DNA of 64,000 bases from Phocoena phocoena (lineage: Eukaryota; Chordata; Mammalia; Artiodactyla; Phocoenidae), in NCBI RefSeq assembly GCF_963924675.1, contig NC_089234.1, positions 22,969,668 to 23,033,667 on the forward strand, in the 5' to 3' direction. Under the pieces are notes generated by a model. It did not search any database, was not told the DNA's origin, and worked only from the letters and a program-made list of their open reading frames with translations. The translations under genes were made by a program, and so were the position numbers. Shown one piece after another: positions 4,558-57,800 of this stretch. The number at the start of each line of letters is the position of its first letter. Positions within the stretch are counted from its first letter, which is position 1.

Positions 4558-5988
4558 ATTACAGGTCAATATCCTTGATAAACATGGATGCAAAATCCTC
4601 AACAAAGTACTAGCAAACCAAATTCAACAATACATAAATAGGATCATAGACCAAGATCAATAAGATTTATTCCAGGGATGCAAGGACATTTCAACATTCA
4701 CAATTAACAAAATGAAGAATAAGAATCACATGATCATCTCAATAGATGCTGAAAAAGCATGTGACAAAATTTTCAACAAAGTGGGTATAGAGGGAACATA
4801 CTTCATCATACTAAAGGCCATAACCGACAAGCTCACAGTTAACATCATACTCAACAATGTAAATCTGAAAGCTTTTCCTCTAAGATCAGGAACAAGACAA
4901 GGATGCCCACTCTCACCACTTTTATTCAACATAGTATTGGAAGTCCTAGCCACAGCAATTAGGCAAGAAAAGAAAGAGAAGTCATCAAAATTTAAAAAAT
5001 GTCACTATTTGCAGATACCAAAATACTATATGTAGAAAATCCTAAAAATTCCATCAAAAAACTGTTACAGTGAATTCAGTTAAGTTACAGGATACAAAAT
5101 CAATACACAGAAATCTGGGTTGTTTCTTTACACTAATAATGAACTATAAGAAAGAGAAAATAAGAAAGCAATCCTATTTACAACTGCATGAAAAAGAATA
5201 AAATACGTAGGAATAAATTTAACCAATGAGGTGAAAAACTTGTAACTTGAAAACTATAAAAAACATTGATGAAAGAAACTGAAGAAGAAACAAATAAATG
5301 GAAAAATATGTCATGTTCATGGATTGACAGAATCAATATTGTTAAAATATCTATAGTATTCAAAGCAATCTATAGAGTCAATGCAATCCCTATCAAAATT
5401 CCAATGCCACATTTCACAGGATTTTAACAATTCTAAAGTTTATATGGAACCACAAAAGATTCTAAATAGCAAAAACAATCTTGAGAAAAAAAGAACAAAA
5501 CTGGAGATATCACAATCCCTGATTTCCAACTATACTACAAAGATATAGTAATCAAAACGTTATGGTACTGACACAATAATAGACACACAGGTCAATGAAC
5601 AGAATTTAGAACCCAGAAGTAAACCCACATATGTATGGACAATTAATTTATAACAAAGAAGCAAAGAACATATAATGGAGAAAGGACAATATCTTCAATA
5701 CACCATACACACAAATGAACTCAAAATGAATTAAAGACTTGAATAAAAGACCTGAAACTATAAAATTCCTAGAAGAATACACAGGTGATAACCTCATGAA
5801 CATTGGTCTCAGTGTTGTTTTTTGTGGATCTGACTGTAAAGGCAAGGAAACAAAAGCAGAAATAAACAAACAGGACAAAGCTTCAAATCTACAAAGCTTC
5901 TACACATGAGGGAAACTACCATCAAAATGAAAGGGAAACCTACTGAATGGGAGAAGGTATTTGCAAATTGTATATCCAATAAGGGGAT

Positions 5989-14245: not shown

Positions 14246-15490
14246 AATTAATCTATGACAAAGGAGGCAAGACTAGAAAATGGAGGAAAGACAGCCTCTT
14301 CAATAAATTGTGCTGAGAAAACTGTACAGGTACCTGTAAAAAAATGAAATTAGAACATTCTTTAACACCACACACAAAAATAAACTCAAAATGGATTAAA
14401 GACCTAAAAGACTAGATACTGTAAAACTCTTAGAGGAAAACATAGACAGAACATTCTTTGACATAAATCGTAGCAAGATCTTTTTCGATCCATCTCCCAG
14501 AGTAATGGAAATAAAAACAGAAATAAAAAAGTGGGACCTAATTAAACGGAAAAGTTTTTGCACAGCAAAGGAAACCAGAAACAAAATGAAAAGACAACCC
14601 ACAGAATGGGAGAAAATATTTGCAAACAAGGCAAGGGATTAGTTTCCAAAATTTACAAACAGCTCATGCAGCTTAATATCAAAAAAAAAAAAAAAAAACA
14701 CACAATCAAAAAATGGACAGAAGACCTAAAGAGACATTTCTCCAAAGAAGACATACAAATGGCCAAGAGGCACATGAAAAGATTCTCAACATTGCTAATT
14801 ATTAGAGAAATTCAAATCAAAACTACAGTGAGGTATCACCTCACACCAGTCAGAAGGGCCATCATCAAAAAAATCTACAAACAATAAATGCTGGAGGGAG
14901 CGTGGAGAAAAGGGAACCCTCTTGCATTGTTGGTGGGAATGTAAAATTGGTACAGCCACTATGGAGAACAGTATGGAGGTTCCTTAAAAAACTGAAAATA
15001 GAGCTACTGTATGATTGAGCAATACCACTCTTGGGCATATATCCTGAGAAAAACATGGTCCGAAAGGATACATGCACCCTAATGTTCAGTGCAGCACTGT
15101 TTACAATGGTCAAGACATGGAAGCAACCTAAATGTTCATTGACAGATGAATGGATAAAGAAAATGTAGTACATGTATACAATAGAATATTACTCAGCCAT
15201 TAAAAAGAATGAAATAATGGCATTTGCAGCAATATGGATGGACTGGAGATTATCATACTAAGTGAAGTAAGTCAGACAAAGATAAGTACCATATGATATC
15301 GCTTATATGTAGAATCTAAAAAAAAAAAAAGGATACAAATGAACTTATTTACAAAACAGAAACAGACTCACAGACTTAAGAGAATGAACTTATGGTTAAC
15401 AGTGGGGAAGGGGGGGGAGAGGGATAGACTGGGAGTTTGGGATTGACGTGTATACACTGCTATATTTAAAACAAAATGCCTTTCCATGAA
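14246..15490 (+). mobile_element. L1 fragment inserted in an older L1
   Basis: L1 ORF2 C-terminal region from AATTAATCTATGACAAAGGA to an incomplete 3' UTR that stops near CACTGCTATATTTAAAACA (about 15,475). It is less diverged than the flanking L1. Reading pieces such as 14,558-14,887 are in the L1 frame, with an A17 run at 14,682-14,698. The usual 3' UTR end and poly(A) are missing, and I found no target-site duplication. Insertion followed by deletion, or recombination between L1s, are both possible. Confidence 0.75.
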
Positions 15491-19890: not shown

Positions 19891-20705
19891 ACAAAGCCAG
19901 CATTCTTCTTAGGGCAACATGGAATATTTCCTATGATAGACCATATATTAGGTCACAAAACATTTCTTAGCAAATTCAAGAGGATTGAAACTATACAAAG
20001 TGTCTTCGCTGACTACAGTGATATGAAGCTAGAAATCAATATCAGGATGAACACTGGAAAATGTATGAATACACGGAAATTGAACTCTCCTCATCAACCA
20101 ATGGATCAGAGAAGAAATTAAAAGGGAAATGAAGTATCTTGAGAAAAACAAAAAAGGAAAAGCAGCATAGCAAAACTGATGGGATGTAGCAAAAGTGTAA
20201 CTAAGAGAGAAGTTCATAGCAATAAACACCTACATCAAGAAACAAGACAGATTTCAAACAACCTAACTCTGACTTAAGAAACTAAAACAAAAACAAAAAC
20301 TGAGCCCAAAGTAAGGAGAAGGAAGAAAATAATAAAGATTAGAGCACAAGTGAAATAGAGAACAGGAAAACAATATAAAAAGATGAACAAAACTAAGAGT
20401 ATGGTCTTCAAAGAAATAAACATAGTTGACAAATGTTTAGCCAGACTAAACAAGGAAAAAAGAGAGAGGACCCAAATCAACAACATTATAATGAAAAAGG
20501 AGACATTTCAACTGATACCATAGACATACAAAGGCTAATAAGAAGCTACTATAAACAATACACCAACAAACTGGACAACCTAGAAGAAACGTAAAAATTC
20601 TCAGAAATATTCAACATTTCAAAACTGAATCAGGAAGAGATACAAAATCTGAACAGGCCAATTACTAGCAAGGAGATTGAATCAGTAATCAAAAATCTCC
20701 CACCA

Positions 20706-20915
20706 GGGCTTCCCTGGTGGCGCAGTGGTTGAGAGTCCGCCTGCCGATGCAGGGGACACAGGTTCGTGCCCCGGTCCAGGAAGATCCCACATGCTGCGGA
20801 GCGGCTGGGCCCGTGAGCCATGGCCGCTGAGCTTGTGCATCTGGAGCCTGTGCTCCGCAACGGGAGAGGCCACAACAGGGAGAGGCCCGAGTACCGCAAA
20901 AAAAAAAAAAAAAAA
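20706..20915 (+). mobile_element. CHR-type cetacean SINE (copy 2)
   Basis: A complete short-form CHR SINE begins GGGCTTCCCTGGTGGCGCAG and ends in about 18 A. Target duplications are AAAAATCTCCCACCA at 20,691-20,705 and AAAAAACTCCCACCA at 20,911-20,925 (one mismatch). It sits in L1 ORF2, so it is younger than that L1. A B-box-like GGTTCGTGCCC is present. Confidence 0.95.
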
Positions 20916-21837
20916 ACTCCCACCAAAGAAAAGCCCAGGACCAAGTGGCTTCACCATTTATTTTACAAAATATTAAAAGAATTAATGTCAATCCTTCTCA
21001 AACTCTTCCAAAACATCCGAAGAGAATACTCCCAAACTCATTTTACAAGGTCAGCATTACCCTGATACCAAAGCAAGAAAAGGACACTACCAGAAAAGAA
21101 AACTACAGGCTAGTATCCTTGATGAAGATAGATGTAAAAATTATCGATAAAATACTATCAAACCAAATTCAGCAGCACATAAAAAAAAATACACAAGTGG
21201 AACTACATCAACCTGAAAAGGTTCTGTACGGCAGAAGAAATAATCAACAAAATGAAAGGACAAACTACAGAATGGGAAAAAATATTTACAAATCATACCT
21301 CATAAGAAGTTAATATCTAAAACATATAAAGAACTCACACAAATCAATAGCAAAAAACACAAATAATCCAACTGAAAAATGGGCAAAGGATCTGAATAGA
21401 CATTTTTCCAGAGAAGATATATGAATAGCCAATAGGTATATGGAAAGTTGCTCAACATTACTAGTCATAGGGGAAATGCAAATCAAAATCACAATGAGAT
21501 ATCACCTCATACATGTTGACATGGCTAGCATCAAAAAGACAATAGGTGGCAGACAAGTGTTGGCAAGGATGTGGAGAAAAAGGAACCCCTGTGCACCACT
21601 GGTGGGATTGTCTGCCAGCACAGCCACTATGGACAACAGTATAGAGGTTTCTCAAAAAATTAAAAATAGAACAATCATAGGATCCAGCAATTCCACCTCT
21701 GGGAATATATCCAAACTACATGAAAACACTATGTCAAAGGGATATCTGCACCCTCATGTTCATAGTAATATTATTTACAACAACCAAGACATGGATACAA
21801 CCTAAGTGTTCACCAACAGATGAACAGATAAAGAAGT

Positions 21838-21892
21838 TACATACATACATATACATACACACACACACCACCCCCACATACACATACGCACA
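21838..21892 (+). repeat. CA/TACA-rich microsatellite in L1
   Basis: Degenerate ACATACATACATATACATAC then ACACACACACACCACC, within the L1 3' region. Confidence 0.8.
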
Positions 21893-22435
21893 GTGGAATA
21901 TTAATCAGCCATTGAGAAGGAGAAAATCCTGCCATTTGTGACAGCACGGATGGACTTTGAGGGCACTATGCTAAGTGAAATAAGTCAGACAGAAAATGAT
22001 AAATACCGCATCATCTTACTTGTATGTGGAACCTAAAACAAGTAAATTAACTCATAAAAAAGAGATCATACCTGTGGTTACCAGAGGCCAGGGGTGGGGG
22101 AAGGGGAAATTGAATGAACTTGGTCAAAAGTAAAAACTTTCAATTATAAGATAAATAAAGACTAGGGACATAATGTACAATATGATGACTATAGTTAACA
22201 TTGCTATATGGTATGTATGAAAGTTATTAAGATCAAAAATCCTAAGAGTTCTCATTGAAAAGAAAAATTATTTTTTCTTTTTTTGTGTTTATATGAGATA
22301 AAGGATATTAACTAAACTTGTGTTACCATTTCATGGTATATGTAAGTCAAATCATTATGCTGTACACCTTAAACTTATACAGTGAGACTTGTCAATTATA
22401 TCTCAATAAAACTGGACAAAACATTTCTGTACATC

Positions 22436-42465: not shown

Positions 42466-43975
42466 TAGAGGTGGCCTTAGGAGAAAAACAGTCTGATTCT
42501 TTAGACCACATCTTTAACTGCACTTGAAAAAATAAAGGTGACCAGCAATTCATTTTCTTCAGTTAATTCTTGCATTGGAAAAATGCTTCAATACTTCTAA
42601 ATAAAGAATTTCTCAAATAATATCAAGAGACCTGAATGTTTTGGTAATGAAACTGTTACAGCCCTAAGAAGCTCTTTCAGGAAAGCAGGTGGTGCTGACT
42701 CAGAAGAGCAGCCCACCTCTCAGCAGAGGTCAGCCACCTCCAGATGAAGGTGGAAAGTCCATTCAATGACGCGAAATACCTCTCCAAGATTATACATCAT
42801 GTGGGCATGAAATGTAAGAAGGATGCCATTTAGATTAGGACAGGGGGTGGAGCTACACTGCTTTCAAATAGGACGGTCTTCTTTTCCTTTCAGGGAACAT
42901 GCAAGTCATAACCTGCCTTTTTCTCTTCTATGAAATAGTGTTTTAGTTGATGGATTCCAAAGACGAGCTTCACCAAGTGAAAACTCACCCTGCTCTTCCT
43001 AGAACCTAAATTAATGCCTACGCTTTCCCCAGAGCTCTCGTTTATGGACTCCAAAGGACTGGAGATTTGAAGACCACCTGCCACAAGCGGAATTTAGCTT
43101 CCCCAAGATCTGTTTTCTTCCTTTTCCCACCCTGGAGCTCCCCACCTCTTTCCAGCAGCCAGCCATCCCAGCAAAGCAGAATTATCACCGACAGTGAAAG
43201 AGAAAGGCCTCAGAGTTAGGCTGTGGGCAGAGCATGCCATAAAGTTACCAGCTTAATTAAGCCATTACAGTTTTTAGGGGGTCTTAAAGACAGGAAATTT
43301 GAATGTATAATCGAGCCTGAGTACAGTCTCATTCTATGTTTTCCTTGGTCTGCTCAGAACCAGATTGCGAATGGGAAATAGCTGGGATAACATCCTGGGG
43401 CAACAAGGTCAGTTGCTCATTTTTACTGTGATCTCCACAAGAAAGTTATGAAGGTTTATTTCTATCGGCTTGGTCCGGGAGTGAAGGGCTTGGACCCTTG
43501 AAGTGCCAAGCAGACAGGCCAACCACACAGAGAGTGCTTTGACTGTCAGCCTGTCCCCAGTGTTCTCAGGGACAATATCCCACACTTCCTTGTACAGAGA
43601 AGCTACAGAATATGGTTAGAGGAAACATTCTCTTTGGAAAAATGATTCTGAACTTCAGCCCTGAATTTAGATAGGGGAAACTAAGAAAGATTACAAACCC
43701 ATGTTCTTCAACTTTGACCAGTAGAGGAGAAGGCCAATTTCCCCCCACTTGGGGGGAAGTGGATATTTAGGGAAAGCACACGAAGCCCACTGCTTATGCC
43801 GTGAACATAGCTCAGCACTTCACAGATTAGGCAGTTTTACTAGTTGACAGCTGTTTATTCCAACGGCATATATTTTACGTAGCAGTACATTCAATACATT
43901 AAGTTGTATTTCAGATGTACTCTAATCCCCACTGCCACCCTACCATATATAAATAAAAGTGCACATACACACTGA
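42466..43975. other. Unassigned host DNA
   Basis: No gene or repeat family recognised. Short open frames here carry no recognisable domain. Confidence 0.4.
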
Positions 43976-43996
43976 GATGCTAAAAGAAAGTTTGCT

Positions 43997-44098
43997 TTGT
44001 TCGCTTCAGCAGCACATATACTAAAACCGGAATGATACAGATAAGATTAGCATGGCCCCGAGCAAGATGCACACAGATTCATGAAGTGATCAAATATA
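43997..44098 (+). pseudogene. RNU6 pseudogene: U6 snRNA pseudogene, 5' half of a U6-L1 chimera
   Basis: The sequence follows U6 spliceosomal RNA almost end to end: TTCGCTTCAGCAGCACATAT, ACTAAAACCGGAATGATACA, AGATTAGCATGGCCCCGAGC, then CACACAGATTCATGAAGTGA. Differences include CAGC for CGGC near the start, small deletions in the GCGCAAGGATGACACGC region, and an altered 3' end (CAAATATA instead of CCATATTTT). There is no terminal T-run: the U6 text is followed directly by L1 ORF2 text (AAGACCTGAAACCA). I see no pol III promoter elements upstream at the U6-typical spacing (no clear TATA at about -30 or proximal sequence element). It is a processed retrocopy and not a working U6 gene. Confidence 0.93.
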
Positions 44099-44111
44099 AG
44101 ACCTGAAACCA

Positions 44112-44323
44112 GGGCTTCCCTGGTGGCGCAGTGGTTGGGAGTCCACCTGCCGATGCAGGGGACACGGGTTCGTGCCCCGGTCCGGGAAGATCCCACATGC
44201 CGCAGAGCGGCTGGGCCCGTGAGCCATGGCCGCTGAGCCTGCGCGTCCGGAGCCTGTGCTCCGCAACGGGAGAGGCCACAGCAGTGAGAGGCCCGTGTAC
44301 CGAAAAAAAAAAAAAAAAAAAAA
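44112..44323 (+). mobile_element. CHR-type cetacean SINE (copy 3)
   Basis: A complete short-form CHR SINE begins GGGCTTCCCTGGTGGCGCAG and ends in about 21 A. Perfect 14-bp target duplications AAGACCTGAAACCA lie at 44,098-44,111 and 44,324-44,337. It sits within a few bases of the U6/L1 junction. A B-box-like GGTTCGTGCCC is present. Confidence 0.97.
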
Positions 44324-45067
44324 AAGACCTGAAACCATAAAACTCCTAGAAAAAAACATAAGCATAAGCAACTTGCCATCAGTCTTGATGATGATTTTTT
44401 GGATTTGATACCAAAAGCTATGGCAACAAAAGCCAAAATAAACATGTGGGATTACATCAAACTAAAAAGCTTCTGTAAAACAAAGGAAACCATCAACAAA
44501 ACAAAAAGCAACCTACAGAATGGGAGAAAATACTTACAAACCATATTTCTGATGAGTTAATATTTGAAATATATAAAGAACTCAAACAACTTAATAGTAA
44601 GAACAAAGCATCTAATTCAAAAATGAGAATATCTGAATAGACTTTTTTTTAAAGGACACATACAGATAGCTAACAGCTATATGAAAAGGTACTGAACATC
44701 ACTACTCATCAGAGAAATGCAAATCAAAACCACAATGAGATATCACCTCCCACCTGTCAGAATGACTATCATCAAAAAGCCAAGAAATAACAAGAGTTGG
44801 CAAGGACAGAAAGGGAACTCTGGTGCACTGTTGATGCGAATGTAAATTGGTGCAGCAACTATGGAAAACAATACGGAGATTTCTCAAAAAGTTAAAGTAG
44901 ATACATGTGATACAGAAATTCCACTTCTGAGTATTTATCCAAAGGGCATGAAAATGCCATGTTGAAGAGATATCTGCATCCCATGTTCATTGCAACACTA
45001 TTTAGAATAGCCAAGATATGAAAACAAACTGCGTCCACCAATGAATGAATGGATAGGCAAATGTCTC

Positions 45068-45102
45068 TCTCACACACACACACACATTCACACACACACA
45101 GG
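45068..45102 (+). repeat. (CA)n microsatellite in L1
   Basis: TCTCTCTCACACACACACAC and a second CACACACACACAGG run. Confidence 0.9.
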
Positions 45103-45690
45103 AATATCATTCAGCCATAAAAGAAGAAAATCTTGCTATTTACAACAGCATGGATGGACCTTTAGGACATTATGCTAAGTGAAGTAAGTCGGACAGAGGA
45201 AGACAAATACCATAAGATGTCACTTATATTTAGGATCCAAAAACAAAACAAAAACAACCCGCCAAAAAAAAACAAAAAATGAACTTATAGACACAGAGAA
45301 CAGATCAGTGTTGTTGCCGGAGGTTGGGGGAACAAATGTGTAAAGGGGGTCAAAAGGTACAAACTTCCAGTTCTAACATAAATAAGTCATGGGGATGTAA
45401 TGTACAACATGGTGACTGTAGTTAATAATACTGTATAGCATATTTAAAAGTTACTAAGAAAATAGATTTTAAAAAGTTCTCATCAGAAGACAAATAATAT
45501 GTAAGCATGTATGGTGACCGACATTAACTAGCCTTGTTGTAGTGATCATTTCTCAATATATATACATATATTTATATATACACACACACAAGTATTGAAT
45601 CATTATGTTGTATACCTGAAGCTAATATAATGTCATATGTCAATTATACCTCAAAAAGTTTTTTAAATAAAAAATATTTTTTGTTGGGTA

Positions 45691-46084
45691 TGTGCTCATG
45701 GTAAAAGAGTCCCAAATCCCATACCCACCCTTTCAGCCTCTGACAATTGTATCTCCTCTCCTTAAAACTAGTTCAACCTGATAGAGAGGTAGGGGTGGAA
45801 CTGAGCAAGCAGAGGGGTGGGATGATATGGGTTGGGGGAGGTGCGCTGTAATGGGTCACAAAGGAGAATATGAAGTATCCGTGATCTAAGGATACCTGTG
45901 GGTTTCCTCCAGTTCTAGTAATTCTTTACATCGACAGAATACTGGCACAGTGATCAAGCAGTTTGTATTGTTAGATCGTGCTAATAAGACACTGAACTTG
46001 GCATTAGATCATATGTCTAATTTATCAGTGAAGAAAAAAAATCTCAGAGAAGAAAGTATGCATTTTAGGTCAAATTATATAAAT

Positions 46085-54854: not shown

Positions 54855-57800
54855 ATGGTAATAAGAACATACATATCGATAATTACCTTAAATGTAAATG
54901 GATTAAATGCTCCAACCAAAAGACATAGACTGGCTGAATGGATACAAAAACAAGACCTGTATATATGCTGTCTACAAGAAACCCACCTCAGACCTAGGGA
55001 TACATACAGACTGAAAGTAGGGGATGGAAAAAGATATTCCATGAAAATGGAAATCAAAAGAAAGCTGGAGTAGCAATTCTCATATCAGACAAAATAGACT
55101 TTAAAACAAAGACTATTACAAGAGACAAAGAAGGACACTACATAATGATCAAGGGATCAATCCAAGAAGAAGATATAACAATTGTAAATATTTATGCACC
55201 CAACATAGGAGCACCTCAATACATAAGGCAAATGCTATTAGCCAAAAAAGGGGAAATAGACAGTAGCACAATAATAGTAGGAGACTTTAACACCCCACTT
55301 TCACCAATGGACAGATCATCCAAAATGAAAATAAATAAGGAAACACAAGCTTTAAATGATACATTAAACAAGATGGACTTAATTGATATTTATAGTACAT
55401 TCCATCCAAAAACAACAGAATAAACTTTCTTCTCAAGTGCTCACGGAACACTCTCCAGGACAGATCACATCTTGTTGTGTCACAAAACAAACCTTGGTAA
55501 ATTTAAGAAAACTGAAGTCGTATCAAGTATCTTTTCTGACCAAAACACTACGCGACTAGATATCAATTATAGGAAAAAATCTGTAAAAACTACAAACACA
55601 TGAAGGCTAAAAAATACACTACTAAATAACCAAGAGATCACTGAGGAATTCAAAGAGTAAATGAAAAATTACCTAGAAACAAATCACAATGAAAACACAA
55701 TGACCCAAAACCTATGGGATGCAGCAAAAACAGTTCTAAGAGGGAAGTTTATAGCAATACAATCCTACCTCAAGAAACAAGAAACATGTCAAATAGACAA
55801 CCTAGCCTTACACCTAAAGCAATTAGAGAAAGAAGGACAGAAAAAGTTAGCAGAGGGAAAGAAATCATAAAGATTAGATCAGACATCAATGAAAAAGAAA
55901 TGAAGGAAACGATAGCAAAGATCAATAAAATTAAAAGCTGGTTCTTTGAGAAGATAAACAAAATTGATAAACCATTAGCCAGACTCATCAAGAAAAAAAG
56001 GGAGAAGACTCAAATCAATACAAGTAGAAATGAAAAAGAAGTAACAACTGACACTACAGAAATACAAAGGATCATGAGAGATTACTACAAGCAACTATAG
56101 GCCAATAAAATGGACAACCTGGAAGAAATGGACAAATTCTTAGAAAAGCACAACCTTCCAAGACTGAGCTAGGAAGAAATAGAAAATATAAACAGACCAA
56201 TCACAAGCACTGAAATTAAAACTGTGATTAAAAATCTTGCAACAAACAAAAGTCCAGGACCAGATGGATTCAAAGGCAGATTCTATCAAACATTTAAAAA
56301 AGAGCTAACACCTATCCTTTTCAAACTCTTCCAAAATATAGCAGAGGGAGGAACACTCCCAAACTCATTCTACGAGGCCACCATCGCCTGATACCAAAAC
56401 CAGACAAAGATGTCACAAATAAGGAAAACTAGAGACCCATATCACTGATGAACACAGATGCAAAAATGCTCCACAAAATACTAGCAAAGAGAAACCGGCA
56501 CCACATTAAAAGGATCATATACCATGATCAAGTGGGGGTTTTCCCAGCAATACAAGGATTCTTCAATATATGTAAATCAATCAATGTGATACACCATATT
56601 AACAAACTGAAGGAGAAAAACTGTATGATAATCTCAATAGATGCAGAAAAAACTTTCAACAAAATTCAACATCTGTTTATGATAAAAACTCTCTAGAAAG
56701 TAGACATAGAGGGAACCTACCTCAACATAATAAAGGTCATATATGACAAACCCACAGTCAACATTGTTCTCAATGGTGAAAAACTGAAACCATTTCCACT
56801 AAAATCAGGAAAAAGACAAGGTTGCCCACTCTCACCACTGTTATTCAACATAGTTTTGGAAGTTTCAGCCACAGCAATCAGAGACAAAAAAGAAATAAAA
56901 GGAATCCAAATGGAAAAGAAGAAGTAAAACTGTCACTCTTTGCAGATGACATGATACTATACATAGAGAATCCTAAAGATGCTACCAGAAAACTATGAGA
57001 GCTAATCAATGAATTTGGTAAAGTAGCAGGATACAAAATTAATGCACAGAAACCTCTTGCATTTCTATATACTAATGATGAAAAATCTGAAAGAGAAATT
57101 AAGGAAACACTCCCGTTTACCACTGCAACAAAAAGAATAAAATACCTAGGAATAAATACCTAAGGAGACAAAAGACCTGTATGCAGAAAATTATAAGACT
57201 GATGAAAGAAATTAAAGATGACTGAAACAGATGGAGAGATGTACCATGTTCTTGGATTGGAAGAATCAACCTTGTGAAAATGACTCTACTACCCAAAGCA
57301 ATCTACGGATTCAATGCAATCCCTATCAAACTACCAATGGCATTTTTCACAGAACTAGAGCAAAAAATTTCACAATTTGTATGGAAACACAAAAGACCTC
57401 GAATAGCCAAAGCAATCTTGAGAACGAAAAACGGAGGTGGAGGAATCAGGCTCCCTGACTTCGGACTATACTACAAAGCTTCAGTGATCAAGACAGTATG
57501 GTACTGGCACAAAAACAGAAAGATAGATCAATGGAACAGGATAGAAAGCCCAGAGATAAACCCACACACATATGGTCACCTTATCTTTGATAAAGGAGGC
57601 AAGAATATACAATGGAGTAAAGACAACCACTTCAATAAGTGGTGCTGGGAAAACTGCACAGCTACATGTAAAAGAATGAAATTAGAACACTCCCTAACAC
57701 CACACACAAAAGTAAACTCAAAGTGGATTAAAGACCTACATGTAAGGCCAGGCACTATAAAACTCTTAGAGGAAAACATAGGCAGAACACTCTATGACAT

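What the first reader, a model, noticed from the sequence alone, without database searches (positions are those of the whole stretch)
43997..45690. U6 snRNA-L1 chimeric retrocopy, later split by a CHR SINE at its junction
A near-complete U6 sequence (43,997-44,098) is joined without its normal T-run to L1 ORF2 C-terminal text. A CHR SINE landed within about 14 bp of the fusion point and carries perfect 14-bp target duplications (AAGACCTGAAACCA), which lets the original order be read: U6, then L1, with no gap. U6-L1 fusions are known from primates and rodents and are explained by RT template switching from L1 RNA to U6 RNA during target-primed reverse transcription. This would be a cetacean example. 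I found no clear target-site duplication around the whole unit; a weak candidate is ATGCTAAAAGA at 43,977 against ATGGTAAAAGA near 45,696.
Basis: partly seen in the sequence, partly recalled or inferred. Interest (0 to 1): 0.75.

Follow-up and report, generated by a model that had tools for sequence, protein, structure and literature searches.

The report
Old U6-LINE-1 fused retrocopy, SINE-split
This stretch holds an old, decayed fusion of the splicing RNA U6 with the tail of a LINE-1 jumping element, later interrupted by a small SINE; such fusions are well known in mammals, and the one unusual feature is that the U6 part seems to stop a few bases short of its normal end.

Summary
Rfam finds U6 at 43,997-44,100. 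A CHR-type SINE with a perfect 14-bp duplication follows, then a 5'-truncated L1 from ORF2 codon ~968 to near its 3' end. With SINE and one duplication set aside, U6 runs straight into sense L1. The 600 bp upstream of U6 shows no L1, although the same test finds upstream L1 text in three control copies. A single insertion event is the best reading.

The best-fitting U6 end is nt ~94-98 (94 is the edge of one scan); models with the normal end fit worse. Doucet et al. 2015 say internal switching was never observed for U6/L1, so this may be a variant. A later small deletion could mimic it.

No convincing target duplication surrounds the unit. No orthologue or empty site was examined: the genome search did not complete eight times. 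The kind is well known, and repeat-associated U6 copies are already tabulated for dolphin. Ordinary, with a mildly unusual junction.

The parts
43982..43996 (+). inferred 5' target-site sequence between a CT/AAAA endonuclease-like site and the U6 start; its 3' counterpart is not convincingly found
   Evidence: sequence; the last 10 bases have only an 8/10 partner in the 3' zone, reached by 288 of 5000 shuffles
43997..44091 (+). U6 snRNA retrocopy, nt 1 to ~98, with 13 substitutions and 3 one-base deletions
   Evidence: Rfam RF00026; alignment to a recalled U6 sequence
44092..44111 (+). start of 5'-truncated L1 ORF2 text; 44,098-44,111 is the left copy of the SINE target duplication
   Evidence: AAATATAAG against AAATGTAAG in two window L1 copies
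44112..44323 (+). CHR-type SINE with 21-A tail, inserted later
   Evidence: 93-94% identical to copies at 20,705 and 11,685; perfect 14-bp duplication; family name recalled
44324..44337 (+). right copy of the SINE target duplication, where L1 resumes
   Evidence: exact word search
44338..45657 (+). rest of the L1: ORF2 C-terminal part (residue ~968 on) and 3' part, with broken frames
   Evidence: PDB sequence match to LINE-1 ORF2 protein; stops in all three frames; alignment to the L1 at 21,177-22,409 reaches 45,657

Best explanation
An old L1 retrotransposition event inserted one bipartite copy: the 5' 94-98 nt of U6 snRNA fused in sense to a 5'-truncated L1 (ORF2 C-terminus to near the 3' end). 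Most likely the L1 reverse transcriptase, copying L1 RNA from its 3' end at the target, jumped from ORF2 text onto U6 RNA close to the U6 3' end and ran to the U6 5' end. The locus has decayed since. A CHR-type SINE later inserted about 20 bp downstream of the fusion point and made the 14-bp duplication. Shown: the order, the orientation, the direct join, the SINE insertion, and that no normal U6 tail is there now. Inferred: a single event, template switching, and that the tail was missing from the start.
For: The U6 match begins at model position 1 and is in sense with L1. The SINE duplication is perfect, so U6 and L1 were contiguous before it. The 600 bp upstream of U6 match nothing else in the window, while the three control copies tested find L1 upstream of the same point, including a divergent copy at 72-74%. 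L1 identity continues 5' of AAGACC: AAATATAAG matches 8 of 9 bases in the copies at 925 and 38,987, and 7 of 9 in those at 57,744 and 5747. Join models: with linear gaps the best U6 end is nt 98 for 3 of 4 L1 references, tied 98/100 for the fourth. With affine gaps, U6 ends at 103-107 lie 4.2-8.9 log units below the best for all 4. Published chimeras have the same order and sense orientation (PMC4476161 section 6, PMC13174262 section 10).
Against: No convincing target-site duplication around the whole unit. No orthologue or empty site. Published U6/L1 chimeras have typically full-length U6. The join models rest on four divergent L1 copies and rates I chose. For the copies at 5747 and 57,744, U6 end 98 beats 103 by only 2.1-2.6 log units. 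The affine model's margin against a full-length join comes largely from the price I set on one deletion event (about 4.6), so it does not by itself exclude a later deletion. Its best U6 end for 3 of 4 references is 94, the lower edge of that scan; shorter ends were not scored, and the scan began at 96.
Confidence: 0.62

Rival explanations
1. A standard full-length U6 with its T-run was joined to L1, by RNA ligation before reverse transcription or by end-to-end switching, and a small later deletion removed the T-run and last few bases.
For: Published U6/L1 chimeras are typically full-length; this copy has lost three other single bases in U6, so small deletions did occur.
Against: It needs an extra deletion exactly at the join. 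Models with U6 ends 103-107 fit 4.2-8.9 log units worse with affine gaps and 2-16 worse with linear gaps at the ends compared (103, 104, 105, 107), though part of this is the assumed price of a deletion. The bases AAATATAAG match L1 better than U6.
Confidence: 0.27
2. Two separate insertions: a 3'-truncated (tailless) U6 retrocopy, and an independent 5'-truncated L1 that landed exactly at its 3' edge.
For: Tailless 3'-truncated U6 copies are common in many mammals (PMC4476161 section 8 and Table 2), and no duplication convincingly brackets the whole unit.
Against: Needs a coincidence of both ends. A separate L1 insertion would leave a copy of the U6 end after the L1 tail; by eye none is there. 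Table 2 lists 0 truncated U6 copies among 31 analysed in dolphin, young copies only.
Confidence: 0.08
3. U6 retrocopy inserted into an already present, longer L1.
For: U6 and L1 are directly adjacent.
Against: No L1 text found in 600 bp upstream of U6, with a working positive control.
Confidence: 0.02

Closest known systems
U6/L1 chimeric retrocopies of mammals (Doucet et al. 2015, PMC4476161; Law and Burns 2026, PMC13174262)
   Same: 5' U6 in sense, joined to a 5'-truncated L1; U6 5' end complete; read as one bipartite unit
   Different: the U6 3' end seems to lack about 9-13 nt, where published ones are typically full-length; whole-unit target duplication not found; split by a later SINE
U5/L1 and U3/L1 chimeras (same papers)
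   Same: a join point inside the small RNA, as in these truncated chimeras
   Different: the RNA here is U6, and the missing part is small
Tailless 3'-truncated U6 retropseudogenes (Doucet et al. 2015, section 8)
   Same: U6 without its 3' end
   Different: those are not followed by a retrotransposon and are explained by priming at the target site

Membership tests
U6/L1 chimeric retrocopy | U6 snRNA copy in sense at the 5' side of an L1 | tested here: met
U6/L1 chimeric retrocopy | direct join without intervening sequence | tested here: met
   after setting the SINE and one duplication aside
U6/L1 chimeric retrocopy | L1 5'-truncated (frequent, not strictly defining) | tested here: met
   starts at about ORF2 residue 968; no L1 in 600 bp upstream of U6
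U6/L1 chimeric retrocopy | U6 full-length (typical, not strictly defining) | tested here: inconclusive
   5' end complete; 3' end best fits nt 94-98 of 107, but a later deletion cannot be excluded
U6/L1 chimeric retrocopy | target-site duplication bracketing the whole unit | tested here: inconclusive
   two weak candidates; 2.7% of 2000 and 288 of 5000 shuffles reach them
U6/L1 chimeric retrocopy | both parts present or absent together across species | not tested
   needs other mammal genomes, which I had none of; the genome search on the window's own assembly was unanswered
CHR SINE | family sequence and target duplication | tested here: inconclusive
   duplication and two further window copies shown; the family name is recalled, no repeat library was at hand

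The most novel reading that the evidence does not exclude
A U6/L1 chimera formed by an internal jump of the L1 reverse transcriptase, about 9-13 nt inside U6, near an A/T-rich stretch where U6 and L1 text partly agree. Doucet et al. 2015 write that internal initiation was never observed for U6/L1. It would argue for template switching, because ligation of mature U6 would be expected to leave its U-tract at the join (my inference).
Probability: 0.4. Interest if true: 0.4.

Novelty: new member of a known kind. Interest (0 to 1): 0.25.

Why it matters
Two mechanisms are published for U6/L1 chimeras: ligation of U6 RNA to L1 RNA before reverse transcription, and template switching during it. A join inside U6 without the U-tract would favour switching. 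One decayed locus is weak evidence, but it suggests a simple census: the U6 end position at the join across cetartiodactyl chimeras.

Tried and rejected
Neither is accepted. A repeat search within 43,940-44,010 found nothing.

U6 inserted into an older L1: rejected by the upstream test.

Better L1 reference from public contigs: one IUPAC pattern scan of viral contigs gave 0 matches.

Search of the window's own genome: eight identical requests unanswered.

Papers not held: PMC6789731 (Moldovan 2019), PMC169886 (Buzdin 2003), doi 10.1101/gr.5870107 (Garcia-Perez 2007). The search on the CHR-1 SINE listed 8 of 234 papers, none useful. One search failed in my script and was rerun corrected.

In the join models 4 of the 5 window L1 copies that reach this point were used; the copy at 14,408 was left out because it lacks several bases exactly there.

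On checking, I found that the affine scan began at U6 nt 94, its best value for 3 of 4 references, and that its margin leans on the assumed price of a deletion. I lowered the main confidence from 0.7 to 0.62 and raised the deletion rival from 0.22 to 0.27, the two-insertion rival from 0.07 to 0.08 and the insertion-into-L1 rival from 0.01 to 0.02.

Full report
What is there. The window holds one U6-like sequence at Rfam's gathering threshold, 43,997-44,100 on the + strand (RF00026, 51.8 bits, cut-off 44). The model match starts at position 1. Six of the 13 lie at CpG sites; the other seven are 7 of 81 non-CpG sites. A shuffle control gave a maximum score of 18 against 65 (500 shuffles). The divergence makes it a decayed retrocopy rather than a working gene (inference).

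The SINE. AAGACCTGAAACCA occurs twice on the + strand of the window, at 44,098-44,111 and 44,324-44,337. Between the copies lies a SINE of the kind I recall as CHR, with a 21-A tail. It is 93-94% identical to copies at 20,705 and 11,685. The three copies differ pairwise by 12-16 mismatches and up to 2 gaps over about 192 bases, so each is some 3-4% from a common source and looks younger than the U6 copy, whose non-CpG divergence from U6 itself is about 9%. ARAGORN found no tRNA in the window.

The L1. From 44,324 the sequence matches L1 copies elsewhere in the window at 66-70% over the longer matches, the longest alignment reaching 45,657. The ORF2 text lies in broken frames. An 80-residue piece joined across frames matches LINE-1 ORF2 protein residues 968-1028 of 1275 (E 1.1e-13).

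The join. Setting aside the SINE and one duplication, the sequence reads GAAGTGATC AAATATAAGACCTGAAACCATAAAACTCC. Five other L1 copies in the window reach this point. Two read AAATGTAAG before the shared text, one ACATGTAAG, one GAATAAAAG, and one (14,408) lacks several bases there. AAATATAAG (44,092-44,100) therefore matches 8 of 9 bases in two copies and 7 of 9 in two others. Rfam spreads its U6 match over these bases; a local alignment to U6 needs a one-base insertion to reach CATAT.

I scored joins of U6[1..k] with L1[j..] against the observed bases for four of the five copies. With linear gaps the best k was 98 for three and tied between 98 and 100 for the fourth; k=103 was 2.1-5.4 log units lower and k=107 12-16 lower. 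With an affine model the best k was 94 for three references and 95/96 for the fourth; k=98 was 0.2-2.3 lower and k=103-107 4.2-8.9 lower. Two cautions. The affine scan began at 94 and the linear one at 96, so shorter U6 ends were not scored. And in the affine model a full-length join can always be rescued by one deletion, whose price (about 4.6) I set; the margin against it is largely that price. What the bases show is that the normal U6 end is not there now. Whether it was absent from the start is inferred.

One event or two. The 600 bases before U6 match nothing else in the window, while the same stretch before the L1 point in the three control copies tested (925, 38,987, 57,744) finds the other L1 copies, including a divergent one at 72-74%. 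So U6 was probably not dropped into a longer L1. A separate L1 landing on the edge of a U6 copy would leave a copy of the U6 end after the L1 tail; by eye none is there. A single bipartite insertion is the simplest reading. A duplication around the whole unit would settle it, but both candidates are weak. The U6 start sits 15 bases after a CT/AAAA site, where an L1 endonuclease cut could be expected; that is suggestive only.

What is known. I read sections 6, 8 and 9 and passages of Doucet et al. 2015 (PMC4476161), and section 10 and passages of Law and Burns 2026 (PMC13174262). U6 at the 5' side, in sense, joined to a 5'-truncated L1 is the standard form. Law and Burns list 180 such loci, with U6 typically full-length and 98.3% in sense. 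Doucet et al. Table 2 gives dolphin 10 retrotransposon-associated U6 copies among 31 analysed; that table counts only copies at least 97.5% identical to U6, so a copy as old as this one would be outside it. [quoted passage not shown] Law and Burns name two mechanisms, RNA ligation before reverse transcription and template switching. Moldovan et al. 2019, the ligation paper, was not held; I know it from the citing paper and recall. Five paper searches of an open-licence library listed no paper devoted to cetacean U6/L1 chimeras; two searches listed 10 of 20 and 10 of 12 papers, the other three all they found.

Verdict. The kind is well known. The one point that could interest a specialist is the join inside U6. 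It has a plain rival, a small deletion after insertion, and only orthologues can tell. The genome search that might have helped was unanswered in eight tries.

Noticed in passing
window 20,901-22,409: An L1 copy whose ORF2 text jumps from the part equivalent to ~37,763 to the part equivalent to ~39,092 of other L1 text in the window, so about 1.3 kb seems to be missing inside it; the break is near 21,180.
   Followed up: partly
window 925, 38,987 and 57,744: Three closely similar L1 copies (87-91% to each other over about 600 bases before these points), all on the + strand, in one 64-kb window.
   Followed up: no
window 45,063-45,099: A CA-rich run (TCTCTCACACAC...) lies inside the L1 part of the chimera, possibly grown after insertion.
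   Followed up: no
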